From a virus, in IMG/VR virus record IMGVR_UViG_3300030107_004639, positions 1-32,696 of that record: DNA of 32,696 nt; one strand, 5' to 3'. The notes under the pieces are model-generated. The model saw only the letters and a program-made list of their open reading frames with translations. It was not told the origin of the DNA and did no database searches. The position numbers and the translations under genes were made by a program. Shown one piece after another: positions 1-32,696 of this stretch (positions within the stretch are counted from its first letter, which is position 1; the number at the start of each line of letters is the position of its first letter).

Positions 1-66
1 GATTCTGGCAAAAGACGAGAAACCCCTTATGGAAAGACAGCAATAGTATGGCGAAAAAAAAAGTAG
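1..66 (+). CDS. C-terminal end of winged-helix DNA-binding protein (partial)
   Basis: The first 66 bases read in frame 1 as the C-terminus of a protein ending in TPYGKTAIVWRKKK and a TAG stop at 64-66. The same end is seen in the complete gene at 32042-32332, whose last residues are nearly identical. The start lies outside the window. The stop overlaps the start of the next gene (ATG at 48), as in the other copy. It is therefore the left-end remnant of the winged-helix gene that heads the rightward operon. Confidence 0.85.
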   Translation, partial: DSGKRRETPYGKTAIVWRKKK

Positions 67-356
67 CTACAAAAGCCGAGAAAGAGCATATGTCCAAAGT
101 AGCCCAGATGGGTTGTTATGCTTGTGAAGTTAATGGAATAGAAAATCATGCAGAGATACATCACATCAGAAAGCATACAGGAATGGGGTTAAGACCGCCA
201 CACAGCGACACAATCCCTTTATGCAGCATCCACCATAGGACAGGTAAAGATTCAATACATTTGGGCAAGAAATTATTTATTAAAAAGTATGGAACAGAGC
301 AAGAAATATTAAAAATTGTTAAGAGGAGATTAAGTGGAAATTCAGAAGAGATATAA
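48..356 (+). CDS. Ref-like HNH nuclease (RecA-dependent nuclease family), allele 1
   Basis: This small basic protein (102 aa) has a zinc/HNH architecture: CxxC at residues 23-26, a His-His pair at 38-39, an IPLCxxHH motif (C59, H62, H63) and H71 before a YG tail. The pattern matches the Ref family, known from phage P1 Ref, a nuclease that cuts DNA at RecA filaments and D-loops. A role in recombination or late DNA processing is inferred from the family. Its start lies inside the end of the winged-helix gene. Its last residues (SGNSEEI) are encoded by sequence that the diverged copy at 32314 lacks, so the C-terminus has been extended by the neighbouring insertion. A generic HNH endonuclease is the alternative. 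Confidence 0.75.
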   Translation: MAKKKVATKAEKEHMSKVAQMGCYACEVNGIENHAEIHHIRKHTGMGLRPPHSDTIPLCSIHHRTGKDSIHLGKKLFIKKYGTEQEILKIVKRRLSGNSEEI

Positions 357-1244
357 CGAATTTAAAAAAAATCATTGTTGGCAATATGAAATTAGACTTA
401 AAAATTACAATAATGATTTAAAAGAAGCTAATTTAACAGAGGATATAGTTAAAACACTTACTACTGATGATTTTAATTTTGAATATGTAGATAAAGCCAA
501 TAAATTTAAGTGTTATGAAATTTCAAAATTTATAGAAAGACACGAATGGTTAGGTAAAATGCCAATATGGATTACTCATAGATTTGTTGCTAGATTAAAA
601 TTAAATAATATTCTTGCTGGTGTTATTGTATTATCAACTCCAAACACCTTTTCGTATTTATTAGGTAAAGAAAATAAAAATATAGAAAAATTAATATCAA
701 GAGGTGCTTGTGTATCTTGGTCGCCAAAAAATTTAGCTTCTTGGTTAATAATGAAATCAATTAAATTTATGGTTAAACATACAGAGTTTAGAATTTTTAC
801 AGCTTATTCTGATCCTGAAGCTAAAGAATTGGGTACTATTTATCAAGCTTGTAATTTTTTATATTTAGGTAATTCTTTTGGCGGTAAATTGCAATTTTTT
901 GATAATGCTAATCCTAAAAGGGGTTGGTTTGGTGTTAATGGTTTTTCAGATAGAAGCCAAATTATTAGATATGCCAAATTGTTAAATATTAAATGGCAAA
1001 AATCTTGGTATAAATATGTTGGTGCTAAACAAAATTATAGAAAAATTAATTGGCATAATATTCCTGAAGATGTTGCTTTGAAGTTAAAAGCCGCAAGAAA
1101 ACAACATCAAAATAAATGCCAAAAAAGACAATCATTATCTAAACATAAATACGCATACATTTTAGGTAAGAATCGTAAAGAAACTAGAGAATTAAAAAAA
1201 ATGCTTAAAGTTAAAACTTATCCATATCCTAAAGAAAGGGGTTT
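334..1244 (+). other. 911-bp cassette absent from the diverged copy at the window end
   Basis: The sequence GAGATTAA ends at 333 and also at 32584. In the right-end copy it is followed directly by ATGAGTAGAAAATCTGG, which here begins at 1245. The extra block therefore runs exactly from the GTG of the Mom-like gene to the base before the ATG of the replication gene. No terminal inverted repeats or target duplication are visible, so it looks like gene gain or loss by recombination rather than transposition. Confidence 0.8.
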
Positions 1245-1248
1245 ATGA
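334..1248 (+). CDS. Mom-like DNA modification protein (GNAT-fold acyltransferase-like)
   Basis: The 304-aa product has a GNAT-like core at about residues 55-185 followed by a basic Lys/Arg/His-rich C-terminal third that could bind DNA. The segment with RGACVSW, NLASWLI, FTAYSDPEA and GTIYQACNF resembles the Mom family. In Mu, Mom modifies adenines and protects phage DNA from restriction. R123, S136, D160 and Y170 are spaced about as I remember the important residues of Mu Mom; this was not checked by alignment. The start is GTG at 334, with the SD AAGAGGAGA at 321-329 inside the upstream nuclease gene. The diverged copy at the right end lacks exactly this gene. Another GNAT activity cannot be excluded. 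Confidence 0.65.
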   Translation: MEIQKRYNEFKKNHCWQYEIRLKNYNNDLKEANLTEDIVKTLTTDDFNFEYVDKANKFKCYEISKFIERHEWLGKMPIWITHRFVARLKLNNILAGVIVLSTPNTFSYLLGKENKNIEKLISRGACVSWSPKNLASWLIMKSIKFMVKHTEFRIFTAYSDPEAKELGTIYQACNFLYLGNSFGGKLQFFDNANPKRGWFGVNGFSDRSQIIRYAKLLNIKWQKSWYKYVGAKQNYRKINWHNIPEDVALKLKAARKQHQNKCQKRQSLSKHKYAYILGKNRKETRELKKMLKVKTYPYPKERGL

Positions 1249-1823
1249 GTAGAAAATCTGGGTATTTTATATGTTATCGTAATATTTGGCAACATCCTGT
1301 ATTTAAGAACCTATTACAAGCTTCTTGCTGGATATATATGATTAGTTCAGCTTCCCATCAGGATAAGGATTTAATGTTTTTAAATAACAAGATATTCGTA
1401 AGAAGAGGGGAGTTAATATTTCCTTTAAGAATTAATGCTAAAAGATTTAAAATGAGTTATAGTGAGATGCGTACTTTCATACTACGGCTAGTGCGTAGAA
1501 AAATGATAACCACTAGAACCAACCACCTACAGCCCACCTCTAACCACCCTAACCGAAAAGTAACCCTAATTAAGCTTGTAAATTACGATCAATTTCAGTA
1601 TGTGGATAACCAGCAACCACCTCCCAACCACCTATCGCAACAAGTACTAAATAACAATACTAATAAACATATACTAATTAGTAGTAATAAAAATGTTAAT
1701 AAGATTAGCAAGGAATACGAAGAAATAGGTACTGAAGATCATTATGTGATTTTAAAGAAAAAATCTAATGGTAAGAAGTATTTAAAGCATAAGTGGAAAG
1801 ATGAACCTTTAAAGGATTATTGA
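1245..1823 (+). CDS. Winged-helix replication initiator / DnaD-like protein
   Basis: The N-terminal ~115 residues start SGYFICYRNIWQHPVF and continue through a RRGELIFPLR segment to a HTH-like stretch (MSYSEMRTFILRLVRRKMI). This resembles the N-terminal winged helix of phage replisome organisers (O/DnaD-type proteins). The middle is Asn/Thr-rich and probably flexible, and the C-terminus is basic. Such proteins bind the phage origin and recruit the host helicase; that role is inferred from the family and from the absence of a phage polymerase. The ATG at 1245 overlaps the stop of the Mom-like gene (ATGA) and follows AAAGGGG. A second, partial copy begins at 32585. Confidence 0.55.
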   Translation: MSRKSGYFICYRNIWQHPVFKNLLQASCWIYMISSASHQDKDLMFLNNKIFVRRGELIFPLRINAKRFKMSYSEMRTFILRLVRRKMITTRTNHLQPTSNHPNRKVTLIKLVNYDQFQYVDNQQPPPNHLSQQVLNNNTNKHILISSNKNVNKISKEYEEIGTEDHYVILKKKSNGKKYLKHKWKDEPLKDY

Positions 1824-2428
1824 TGAAAGTATTAATAGCTTGTGAATATTCTGGTATAGTAAGAGATGCTTTTGCAGCTAAAGGTCATAATGCTTGGAGT
1901 TGTGATATTTTACCAACCGAATCTAAAGGAAACCATATTCAAGGAGATGTATTAAAACATTTAGATAAAAATTGGGATTTAATGATAGCACACCCACCTT
2001 GCACTTATTTATCAAATGTTGGTGTAAGATGGTTATATAAAAATGGTAAATTAAATAAAGAAAGGTTTAATAAAGGACTTAAAGCTAAAGAATTTTTTTT
2101 AAAATTATTAAATGCTAAAATACCTAAAATATGCGTAGAAAATCCAAAACCAATGAAAATTTTTAATTTACCTAAAAATAGTAGTTATGTAGAACCTTAT
2201 GAGTTTGGACACCCTTTTTCTAAAAGAACTTATTTGTGGTTAAAAAATTTAGCACCATTATTTGCTACAAATATTATTGCTTCACATACTACTTTTTTAC
2301 CTAGTAATACTGGTGGAAAGAAAAGAAACCAAAAATATAATATAAAAAAAATACCAAAAAATTATAATAAAGAACATTCAAGATTTTGGACAGGAATTGC
2401 AGAAGCTATGGCAAATCAATGGACATAA
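1823..2428 (+). CDS. C5-cytosine methyltransferase-like protein
   Basis: This 201-aa protein has the compact SAM-methyltransferase layout common in phages. Motif I is at residues 5-15 (IACEYSGIVRD), an acidic cofactor segment is near 28 (CDILP), the catalytic PPCTYLS motif has Cys60, and VENP follows. Its start overlaps the previous stop (TGATG), so I chose ATG 1823 over TTG 1820. The length leaves little room for a target recognition domain, as in other phage members annotated as DNA methylases, so specificity is unknown. With the Mom-like gene it forms a likely anti-restriction pair. It could also be a non-DNA-specific Rossmann methyltransferase. Confidence 0.65.
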   Translation: MKVLIACEYSGIVRDAFAAKGHNAWSCDILPTESKGNHIQGDVLKHLDKNWDLMIAHPPCTYLSNVGVRWLYKNGKLNKERFNKGLKAKEFFLKLLNAKIPKICVENPKPMKIFNLPKNSSYVEPYEFGHPFSKRTYLWLKNLAPLFATNIIASHTTFLPSNTGGKKRNQKYNIKKIPKNYNKEHSRFWTGIAEAMANQWT

Positions 2429-29230: not shown

Positions 29231-29674
29231 TTAAAAAGGAATTTCATCGTCAAATTCCTCCAGATTCTCTTCTACCTTAATTTGCTTTGTTTGTATAGCT
29301 TGGGGTTGAGGTGTTGGTTGTACTTGAACAGGTGGAACTTGTATTTTTTTCATTCCATCTATCGCACCTGATTTAAAGGGTTTAACCATATAAATAGAAA
29401 CTACCTGTTCTGTGTCAGCACCATATTTAGTTTCTTTTGCATCTTGTGTTTTACTACCCCATTTCAGCATATAACCTTGTTTAGCATAAGCTTGTACTTC
29501 AGGTGTTTGATACCATTCAATAACTTGACTCAAAGAATATAGCTTTCGTGTTAAACTGCACATTAATTTAGCTTTTGTAGCTGAAGCTTGATATTCCATT
29601 TGTGGTGCTTTTTTTCCTGTTTCATATAGCTTTATTGATAACCCACAAAAGGGCATATTATATTTATTTTGCAT
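29231..29674 (-). CDS. SSB-like single-stranded DNA-binding protein, 147 aa
   Basis: The N-terminal ~100 residues (KAPQMEYQASATKAKLMCSL, GYMLKWGSKTQDAKETKYG, VVSIYMVKPFKSG) look like a small beta-rich domain. They are followed by a Pro/Gln-rich linker (VPPVQVQPTPQPQAIQTK) and the acidic tip EFDDEIPF. A flexible linker plus a DDxIPF tip is the hallmark of bacterial SSB, whose tip recruits repair and replication proteins. The OB fold itself is not evident by eye. The gene overlaps the exonuclease gene, which supports a shared role in recombination. Confidence 0.65.
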   Translation of the reverse strand: MQNKYNMPFCGLSIKLYETGKKAPQMEYQASATKAKLMCSLTRKLYSLSQVIEWYQTPEVQAYAKQGYMLKWGSKTQDAKETKYGADTEQVVSIYMVKPFKSGAIDGMKKIQVPPVQVQPTPQPQAIQTKQIKVEENLEEFDDEIPF

Positions 29675-30467
29675 ATTTTTTACTCCTTAATTTATTATAC
29701 TCGTTCATGCGTTTCTTAAAATCTTCTTCAATCGCATTAATATACTTACAAGCTTTAAAAGCTTTTAAATATTTAGATGTTATTTTATAAGACATTAATG
29801 AAACATCTTTGGCTGGTTCTTTAGGAACATTCAATACTGCTAAATAGTCTATCTTATAGTCAGTTGAATCTTCACAAAGTTTTTTATAAGTGTGTAGTTG
29901 AATAGGCATATCAAAATAAAAATCTTTAGAAGTTTTTATATCCAATATTCCATATTTACCTTTCCACGATGGTTTAGTCACAATCATATCACAAGTACCG
30001 CACACATCTAAATCTGTACTATACATTGTTTTTTCTGTGTCCATTGCTTTAAACCCTGACTTATCCCAATAAGCTTTAAACTTAAAAAACATAGTCTTTA
30101 AAGGTTCAGTTTCAGGTAAAGCAAAGTCTTGTTTGGTTACATAACATTCTGCAAGTTTATGCAGATTTGTACCAATAGAACTCGCTTCTTCTTTTAAAGT
30201 TTTTACTTTAGCTTTTAGGTCGTCAGTAAATTGCTGGGAAAAATCTATTGGCTTACCCATAGCTTTAAACTTATTACTTAAAGCTTGATAAACAATATGT
30301 TCACTCCACCACATCAAAGCACCCTTGCCTGACCTTTCTCCTATTAAGGAAGTTACTCCCTTTTTAGGTTCTCCATTAACCTTATATCTATATCTCCCAC
30401 CTTTAGGATTAAATTCAATAAGGTTTCCATTCTTATCTTTAGCTTTTATTATCACTATCTCCTCCAT
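29664..30467 (-). CDS. PD-(D/E)XK exonuclease (RecB/Cas4-like)
   Basis: The 267-aa protein contains the RecB-family nuclease motifs: IGTNLHKLAE (H103), VCGTCDMIV (D160) and YGILDIKTSKD (D176, K178), with a later YxxQLHTY-type helix (MPIQLHTYKKLCE). The N-terminus (KKGVTSLIGERSGKGALMWW) is typical of phage recombination exonucleases. It probably resects DNA ends for recombination with the SSB-like protein encoded just downstream. No annealase is recognised nearby. Overlaps the XRE gene by 29 bases. Confidence 0.8.
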   Translation of the reverse strand: MEEIVIIKAKDKNGNLIEFNPKGGRYRYKVNGEPKKGVTSLIGERSGKGALMWWSEHIVYQALSNKFKAMGKPIDFSQQFTDDLKAKVKTLKEEASSIGTNLHKLAECYVTKQDFALPETEPLKTMFFKFKAYWDKSGFKAMDTEKTMYSTDLDVCGTCDMIVTKPSWKGKYGILDIKTSKDFYFDMPIQLHTYKKLCEDSTDYKIDYLAVLNVPKEPAKDVSLMSYKITSKYLKAFKACKYINAIEEDFKKRMNEYNKLRSKKYAK

Positions 30468-32041: not shown

Positions 32042-32332
32042 ATGAATAAACAATTAGAGTTAGATTACAAAGCTCAAAACTATACCGATACTTCTAAATC
32101 GGCATATATCCAACAAAAGCCAAAATTACTTACTAAAAGAGAACGAGTATTTGAGTTCTTAAAAAGCCAAGCTTCTACTAATTATGAAATAGCAGAAGAA
32201 TTGGAAATGACATTAAGCTCTGTATGTGCAAGATGTAGGGAGCTTCAGGTATTAGATTTGGTAGAGGATTCTGGCAAAAGACGAGAAACCCCTTATGGAA
32301 AGACAGCAATAGTATGGCGAAGAAAAAAGTAG
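32042..32332 (+). CDS. Winged-helix DNA-binding protein
   Basis: After a polar N-terminus, residues about 30-92 read as a winged helix: LLTKRERVFEFLKSQAS, NYEIAEELEMTLSSVCARCR as HTH, then LVEDSGKRRETPYGKTAIVW as the wing. It heads the rightward operon under a likely regulated leader and could be an early activator or repressor, or an origin-binding protein. SD GGGAGGAG is strong. Its stop overlaps the nuclease gene start, as at the left end of the window. Confidence 0.75.
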   Translation: MNKQLELDYKAQNYTDTSKSAYIQQKPKLLTKRERVFEFLKSQASTNYEIAEELEMTLSSVCARCRELQVLDLVEDSGKRRETPYGKTAIVWRRKK

Positions 32333-32592
32333 CAACTAAAAAGGAAAAAGAGTGGATGTCTAAAGTTCAGGCATTAGATTGTTTAATATGTTCTTCTCCA
32401 GCTAATATTCATCACATTAGACCTAAAGGCACAGGCATTGGTAGAAGATCAAGCCATTATGAAACAATCCCACTTTGCCATTTTCATCATCAAGGCCAAT
32501 TTAGTATTCATAATAATAAAAAAGCATTTGAAAAAAAATATGGAACTGAAAAGGAATTATTAGAAATTGTTAAGAGGAGATTAAATGAGTAG
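32314..32592 (+). CDS. Ref-like HNH nuclease, allele 2
   Basis: The 92-aa product has the same architecture as the protein at 48: CxxC (23-26), HH (33-34), IPLCHFHH (C55, H58, H59) and H65 before the YGTEKEL tail. The first and last thirds are well conserved, while the part between the CxxC and the IPLC motif differs strongly in sequence and length. It ends with RRLNE and its stop overlaps the next gene (ATGAGTAG), without the Mom-like insertion. Confidence 0.75.
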   Translation: MAKKKVATKKEKEWMSKVQALDCLICSSPANIHHIRPKGTGIGRRSSHYETIPLCHFHHQGQFSIHNNKKAFEKKYGTEKELLEIVKRRLNE

Positions 32593-32696
32593 AAAATCTG
32601 GTTATTTTATCTGCTATCGTAATATTTGGCAACATCCTGTGTTTAAGAACCTATTACAAGCTTCTTGCTGGATATATATGATTAGTTCAGCTTCCC
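32585..32696 (+). CDS. Replication initiator, second copy (partial)
   Basis: The ORF begins ATGAGTAGAAAATCTGG and continues open to the window end. It matches the first 112 bases of the gene at 1245 with four differences, all silent third-position changes (Gly, Ile, Cys, Val). The remaining gene lies outside the window. It starts directly on the SD that the Mom-like gene uses in the first copy. Confidence 0.8.
   Translation, partial: MSRKSGYFICYRNIWQHPVFKNLLQASCWIYMISSAS

What the first reader, a model, noticed from the sequence alone, without database searches (positions are those of the whole stretch)
334..1244. A Mom-like gene inserted start-to-start between two essential-looking genes
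Comparison of the two copies inside the window shows that the extra 911 bp begin exactly at the GTG of the Mom-like gene and end at the base before the replication gene's ATG. In the short form the SD AAGAGGAGA serves the replication gene. In the long form it serves the modifier, and the cassette brings its own AAAGGGG for the replication gene. It is a clean anti-restriction module gained or lost as a unit and placed at a translation-start junction.
Basis: partly seen in the sequence, partly recalled or inferred. Interest (0 to 1): 0.75.

Follow-up and report, generated by a model that had tools for sequence, protein, structure and literature searches.

The report
Swappable DNA-modification gene in ocean phage
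A virus of the ocean's commonest bacteria carries a one-gene "DNA disguise" cassette (a relative of phage Mu's Mom enzyme) that runs exactly from one gene start to the next, at a spot where close relatives carry nothing or a different DNA-modifying gene, so these phages appear to swap such genes at a fixed slot.

Summary
The window is one ~32.3 kb pelagiphage genome (nearest isolates HTVC026P, 111P, 112P, 202P) whose contig ends overlap but differ: one end reads HNH nuclease, Mom-like gene, DnaD-type gene; the other lacks the 911 bp at 334-1244. The protein is a Mom-family member: Pfam Mom is above cutoff, the best fold match is the Mu Mom crystal structure, and Mu's Ser124 (S124A is inactive) is conserved. 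Relatives show that the junction is a slot. Of 106 distinct HNH-DnaD junctions, 32 are empty and 59 hold only a short ORF; the rest hold mostly one of two distant Moms, a C5 or N4/N6 methyltransferase, a TET-associated glycosyltransferase or a nuclease gene. A second slot just before the nuclease holds 23 inserts: Moms, methyltransferases and PAPS-reductase-like genes. Nuclease allele and slot content reassort (all four combinations seen), and the cassette is more alike between two lineages (99.0%) than its flanks. So it is an exchangeable unit, probably spread by recombination in conserved flanks. The anti-restriction role is inferred from Mom; no host target was shown. Mom genes and phage mosaicism are known; I did not find this start-to-start modification-gene slot described.

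The parts
48..356 (+). HNH nuclease gene, allele A (RecA_dep_nuc / phrog_1588), left neighbour of the cassette
   Evidence: Pfam 43.9 bits against cutoff 26.9, phrog_1588 E 1e-29
313..333 (+). Boundary block at the nuclease 3' end with the Shine-Dalgarno AAGAGGAGA (321-329); shared by empty, Mom and C5-methyltransferase forms
   Evidence: Sequence comparison; no difference from L005 between 313 and 434 although the nuclease body is 59-66% alike
334..1248 (+). Mom-family DNA-modification gene, 304 aa, GTG start; the cassette unit is 334-1244
   Evidence: Pfam Mom 49.1 bits against cutoff 27.1; phrog_1384; fold match 8bv8
1235..1241 (+). AAAGGGG, Shine-Dalgarno-like site for DnaD inside the last codons of the cassette gene
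   Evidence: Read directly; other cassettes also carry purine-rich sites there
1245..1823 (+). DnaD-type replication gene (helicase loader-like), right neighbour
   Evidence: phrog_2514 DnaD-like helicase loader E 5e-17; called DnaD domain protein in isolates
1823..2428 (+). Second DNA-modification gene: cytosine-type DNA methyltransferase (phrog_757); neighbour, not part of the cassette
   Evidence: phrog_757 E 1e-47
32042..32332 (+). HTH-like gene (phrog_1123) upstream of the nuclease; the second insertion slot lies between it and the nuclease in relatives
32314..32592 (+). HNH nuclease gene, allele B, at the other contig end, joined directly to DnaD (short form)
32572..32580 (+). AAGAGGAGA serving DnaD directly in the short form
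   Evidence: Read directly
32585..32696 (+). 5' end of DnaD in the short form (second genotype), cut by the contig end
   Evidence: 96.4% identical to 1245-1356

Best explanation
The insert is a one-gene cassette for a Mom-family enzyme that most likely adds an acyl-derived group to N6 of adenines in phage DNA and so hides that DNA from host nucleases. It sits in an exchange slot between the HNH nuclease gene and the DnaD-type gene of pelagiphages. The cassette runs from start codon to start codon. It takes over the Shine-Dalgarno that otherwise drives DnaD and carries a new one in its own last codons, so each arrangement keeps the operon translated. Contents are swapped between co-infecting phages by recombination in the conserved flanks: the nuclease 3' end with its SD block on the left, DnaD on the right. 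Other modification genes enter the same slot. Shown by sequence: family, slot, boundaries, reassortment. Inferred: chemistry, protection role, recombination machinery.
For: Family: Pfam Mom above cutoff, phrog_1384; fold best match 8bv8, Z 16.6 over 196 residues against 13.6 for the next GNAT; Mu Ser124 = S136, invariant. Slot: 106 distinct junctions, 32 empty, 59 with a short ORF, 14 with a large gene, 8 of these 14 DNA-modification genes; second slot with 23 inserts, 20 of them Mom or methyltransferase. Reassortment: nuclease alleles A and B each occur with Mom and with C5-methyltransferase. Recent transfer: Mom 99.0%, DnaD 96.7%, nuclease 59-66% between window and L005. Start-to-start rule repeated by an unrelated Mom: L085 against L101. 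Turnover: slot content differs in 9 of 20 groups with 95% or more DnaD identity.
Against: No biochemical test. The residues HYSRR of Mu Mom are HEWLGK here, so the chemistry may differ. Almost no restriction systems are reported in SAR11. GIY-YIG and NinG-like genes use the slot too, so it is not reserved for modification. The SD block is short, and coding plus SD constraint could keep it alike without serving as a crossover site. Start-to-start units with SD hand-over are partly expected in any packed phage operon.
Confidence: 0.72

Rival explanations
1. The nuclease and the Mom-like gene form a phage-borne restriction-modification-like pair: Mom marks phage DNA and the adjacent HNH nuclease destroys unmarked host or competitor DNA.
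For: The two genes are adjacent here and in 11 junctions where Mom lies on the other side. [quoted passage not shown]
Against: The nuclease is present in dozens of relatives with no modification gene on either side (26 with both slots empty, 37 with only the short ORF). The same Mom occurs with nuclease alleles only ~65% alike. Outside this phage group Mom is rarely next to this nuclease (5 of 80 loci). The nuclease resembles Ref, a recombination nuclease.
Confidence: 0.08
2. The gene is a mobile hitchhiker placed by homing-type cutting from the neighbouring HNH nuclease, or by endonuclease genes that use the same slot, and spreads without benefit to the phage.
For: GIY-YIG and NinG-like genes occupy the same slot in six junctions, and the nuclease gene itself is exchanged between lineages.
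Against: The nuclease is present whether or not the slot is filled, unlike a homing endonuclease tied to its insert. Unrelated cassette genes share the slot, and most are DNA-modification genes. The Mom gene shows low dN/dS (0.004 to 0.036).
Confidence: 0.1
3. The short form at the window end is an assembly artefact, so nothing about gain or loss follows from the window.
For: It is a contig terminus that disagrees with the contig start, from a mixed population; reads are not available here.
Against: 32 of 106 distinct junctions, including isolate HTVC026P, are empty; L021 and L076 have almost the same junction sequence (AAGGAGAAGATTAAATGAG). Upstream DNA of the short form matches L008 at 97.2%. 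Gain or loss is therefore established without the window end.
Confidence: 0.05

Closest known systems
Phage Mu Mom (PDB 8bv8), N6-adenine DNA modification enzyme
   Same: Fold over nearly the whole Mu chain (Z 16.6), Ser124, Arg, Asp and Tyr of the active region, C-terminal YPK motif.
   Different: About 17% identity. 304 aa against 231-241, with an extra N-terminal helix and a central insertion. HEWLGK in place of HYSRR. Lies in a replication operon with its own SD, next to a nuclease, not behind the translational activator Com (Mu annotation).
Conserved hypothetical (Mom-like) protein of Vibrio phage 501E54-1
   Same: 42% identical over 98%, including the N-terminal extension.
   Different: 148 kb phage, other gene neighbourhood.
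Gene exchange at short boundary sequences in lambdoid phages, especially the lambda nin region (own knowledge; principle cited in PMC3029335)
   Same: Single genes exchanged beside replication genes at gene junctions that carry ribosome-binding sequences.
   Different: Different phages and genes. Here most large inserts are DNA-modification genes, and a crossover at the boundary block is inferred, not observed.
Accessory module of Charybdis elements, marine mobile elements (PMC12324425)
   Same: Same accessory set: methyltransferases, PAPS-reductase-like and Mom-like proteins.
   Different: Different element. There the genes form an accessory operon, not single-gene slots in a phage replication operon.
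DNA hypermodification genes of HTVC023P-type pelagiphages (PMC9599517)
   Same: Pelagiphages acquiring DNA-modification genes.
   Different: Thymidine hypermodification by partner genes, in another phage lineage.

Membership tests
Mom protein family (PF25680 / phrog_1384) | Profile match above the curated cutoff | tested here: met
   49.1 bits against 27.1; phrog_1384 E 8e-18
Mom protein family (PF25680 / phrog_1384) | Mom variant of the GNAT fold | tested here: met
   8bv8 first by Foldseek and by VIA-align, above all other GNATs; model pLDDT 72.5
Mom protein family (PF25680 / phrog_1384) | Residue whose loss inactivates Mu Mom (Ser124) | tested here: met
   S136, invariant in all six aligned Moms
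Mom protein family (PF25680 / phrog_1384) | Modification of adenine N6 in DNA | not testable with these tools
   Needs mass spectrometry or raw nanopore signal
Mom protein family (PF25680 / phrog_1384) | Protection from restriction enzymes | not testable with these tools
   No host restriction target identified
Ref / RecA-dependent nuclease (PF16786), the left neighbour | Profile match above the curated cutoff | tested here: met
   43.9 and 35.9 bits against 26.9 for alleles A and B
Ref / RecA-dependent nuclease (PF16786), the left neighbour | RecA-dependent DNA cutting | not testable with these tools
   Biochemistry needed
Boundary-sequence gene exchange | Short conserved sequence at the junction shared by different contents | tested here: met
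   AAATTGTTAAGAGGAGATTAA before the empty, Mom and C5-methyltransferase forms; its GTTAAGAGGAGATTAA also before the other Mom in L033
Boundary-sequence gene exchange | Crossover placed in that block | tested here: inconclusive
   Window against L005 places the left edge at about 313, but SD and coding constraint could keep the block alike; L009 lacks the block
Homing endonuclease cassette | Nuclease present only with its insert | tested here: not met
   The HNH gene is present with empty, short-ORF and filled slots

The most novel reading that the evidence does not exclude
The Ref-like nuclease gene with its SD-bearing boundary blocks is a dedicated swap site at which SAR11 phages exchange chemically different DNA-modification genes as plug-in cassettes, which implies a so far unseen and changing DNA-targeting defence in SAR11 that selects for new marks.
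Probability: 0.22. Interest if true: 0.72.

Novelty: new variant of a known kind. Interest (0 to 1): 0.5.

Why it matters
SAR11 is described as nearly free of restriction systems, yet its phages keep fast-changing slots for several chemistries of DNA modification, which points to an unseen DNA-targeting pressure in the ocean's commonest bacteria. The slot is also a clear case of how a phage adds a gene to a packed operon without breaking translation, and a fixed address at which to look for new modification enzymes in metagenomes.

Tried and rejected
Bacterial and archaeal genomes searched with the Mom protein: no relative found. Exact search for the SD block plus start codon: only the contigs of L005 and L006, so the window's exact empty junction has no copy in IMG/VR outside this record. 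Single-sequence search of solved structures gave nothing useful; the profile of six Moms, which includes Mu Mom itself, found 8bv8. Motif avoidance as a sign of restriction: GATC and CATG are low in the window but also in isolates without Mom, and GANTC is only slightly under expectation; no conclusion drawn. A general link of Mom with this nuclease: adjacent in only 5 of 80 Mom loci, so the pairing belongs to this phage group, not to Mom. First nuclease scan failed for lack of conservation and was redone with closer sequences. Considered and put low: phage-borne restriction-modification pair, homing hitchhiker, assembly artefact (see rivals).

Full report
WHAT THE WINDOW IS. The window is a whole IMG/VR virus record of 32,696 bp. 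Its closest annotated relatives are Pelagibacter phages HTVC026P, HTVC112P, HTVC111P and HTVC202P, 31.6-32.5 kb, alike at about 76-79% over parts. The ends overlap: 1-336 with 32267-32587 and 1245-1356 with 32585-32696. The overlap is not identical, so the contig has most likely run round a circular map and ended in a second genotype of the same population.

OBSERVATION. Exactly 911 bp, 334-1244, separate the two forms. They begin at the GTG of a 304-aa ORF and end at the base before the DnaD ATG. AAGAGGAGA lies before the start codon in both forms; AAAGGGG lies in the last codons of the ORF. The Mom-like gene overlaps the nuclease by 23 nt and DnaD by 4 nt. The nuclease genes of the two ends also differ (69.8%), so the window alone does not show a clean insertion; relatives do.

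THE PROTEIN. Pfam Mom PF25680 scores 49.1 bits against a cutoff of 27.1, and phrog_1384 (Mom-like) has E 8e-18. The AlphaFold model has mean pLDDT 72.5. Its best solved match is 8bv8, phage Mu Mom S124A: Foldseek E 5e-8, Z 16.6 over 196 residues, against 13.6 for the best other GNAT. Among viral models Mom of Salmonella phage FSL SP-031 comes first. Residue 124 of the 241-codon Mu reading is Ser; it aligns with S136 here and is invariant, as are R123, D160, Y170 and the C-terminal YPK. The nearest annotated relative is in Vibrio phage 501E54-1, 42% over 98%. HYSRR of Mu is HEWLGK here. The protein is a member of a divergent Mom subfamily; its chemistry is inferred from Mu Mom.

THE JUNCTION IN RELATIVES. 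Scans of viral contigs with DnaD and nuclease queries gave 106 distinct nuclease-DnaD junctions. With start codons corrected the slot is empty or nearly so in 32, holds only a short ORF (mostly ~53 aa) in 59, a large gene in 14, and one is unclassified. Large genes: Mom three times (window and L005/L006 of one lineage, L033 of another at ~30% identity), C5 methyltransferase twice (L008, L009), N4/N6 methyltransferase twice (L030, L077), TET-associated glycosyltransferase once (L070), GIY-YIG four times, NinG-like twice. A second slot, between the HTH-like gene and the nuclease, holds 23 inserts: 11 Moms, 5 methyltransferases of phrog_11619, 4 of phrog_757, 3 PAPS-reductase-like. These are counts of distinct sequences, not of independent events. 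DnaD falls into 62 groups at 95% nucleotide identity; 20 have two or more members, and in 9 of these 20 the content of the slots differs. On the DnaD tree at least 17 changes of state are needed; Mom and N4/N6-methyltransferase each need at least two.

BOUNDARIES AND REASSORTMENT. In the window's own group (DnaD about 94-96% nt) nuclease allele A occurs with Mom (window start) and with C5-methyltransferase (L009), and allele B with Mom (L005), with C5-methyltransferase (L008) and empty (window end). All four combinations require recombination between nuclease body and slot. Window against L005: nuclease body 59-66%, then no difference from 313 to 434, Mom 99.0%, DnaD 96.7%; Mom is more alike than DnaD (Fisher p 0.003). 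The left edge of the exchanged piece thus lies in the last ~20 nt of the nuclease gene, the block with the SD. The same block stands before the empty, Mom and C5-methyltransferase forms, and most of it in L033. An independent case: L085 and L101 are alike up to ATGGCAAA, the first codons, after which one continues as a different Mom and the other as the nuclease; similarity returns only at the nuclease 3' end. The rule that an insert begins at a start codon thus holds for at least two distant Mom lineages at two neighbouring junctions.

HOW IT PROBABLY WORKS. Shown: a unit from start codon to start codon stands where relatives have nothing or another such unit; it uses the SD already present and brings one in its 3' end. 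Inferred: crossovers in conserved flanks during co-infection, by phage or host recombination enzymes (the phage encodes an exonuclease, and a Ref-like nuclease). Inferred: Mom modifies adenines and protects against DNA-cleaving defence. The SD hand-over may be a general result of packed operons, since the end of each gene contains its neighbour's SD; selection would keep only arrivals in register. Against a simple restriction story stands the reported near-absence of restriction-modification systems in SAR11 (PMC9516812).

KNOWN AND NEW. Mom-like genes are common in phages (272 phage records match one pelagiphage Mom), and exchange at gene boundaries is a classical idea (PMC3029335). Charybdis elements carry the same accessory set (PMC12324425), and other pelagiphages carry thymidine hypermodification genes (PMC9599517). 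In nine library searches I found no description of Mom in pelagiphages or of this double slot (among them); the library lacks most subscription journals. Verdict: a new variant of a known kind, of moderate interest.

Noticed in passing
L070:3792-4925: A pelagiphage-like contig has a TET-associated glycosyltransferase (PF20691, 138.8 bits) in the same slot; whether a TET/JBP or hydroxymethylcytosine gene accompanies it was not checked.
   Followed up: no
L087:1625-2446, L105:2170-3000, L196:93-914: PAPS-reductase-like genes (phrog_424) fill the slot upstream of the nuclease where other relatives have Mom or methyltransferases; their link to DNA modification is unknown.
   Followed up: partly
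L005:6676-7386, L006:2583-3293: Directly after DnaD these contigs carry a 236-aa protein with an HNH-like end (HLDHIKPCASFDL...NLRPLEAFKN), where the window has a phrog_757 methyltransferase: a possible third exchange position.
   Followed up: no
window 29231-29674 (-): 147-aa ORF without a PHROG match; its close relative in L005 (1785-2228) ends in DDPIPF, like the C-terminal tail of single-strand binding proteins. It lies next to an exonuclease gene (29664-30467).
   Followed up: partly
L003:5265-5777: In HTVC112P the nuclease has an N-terminal part (EHFEVIDRNRHR...) like the separate ~53-aa ORF that fills the nuclease-DnaD slot in many relatives: a possible fusion of the two.
   Followed up: no
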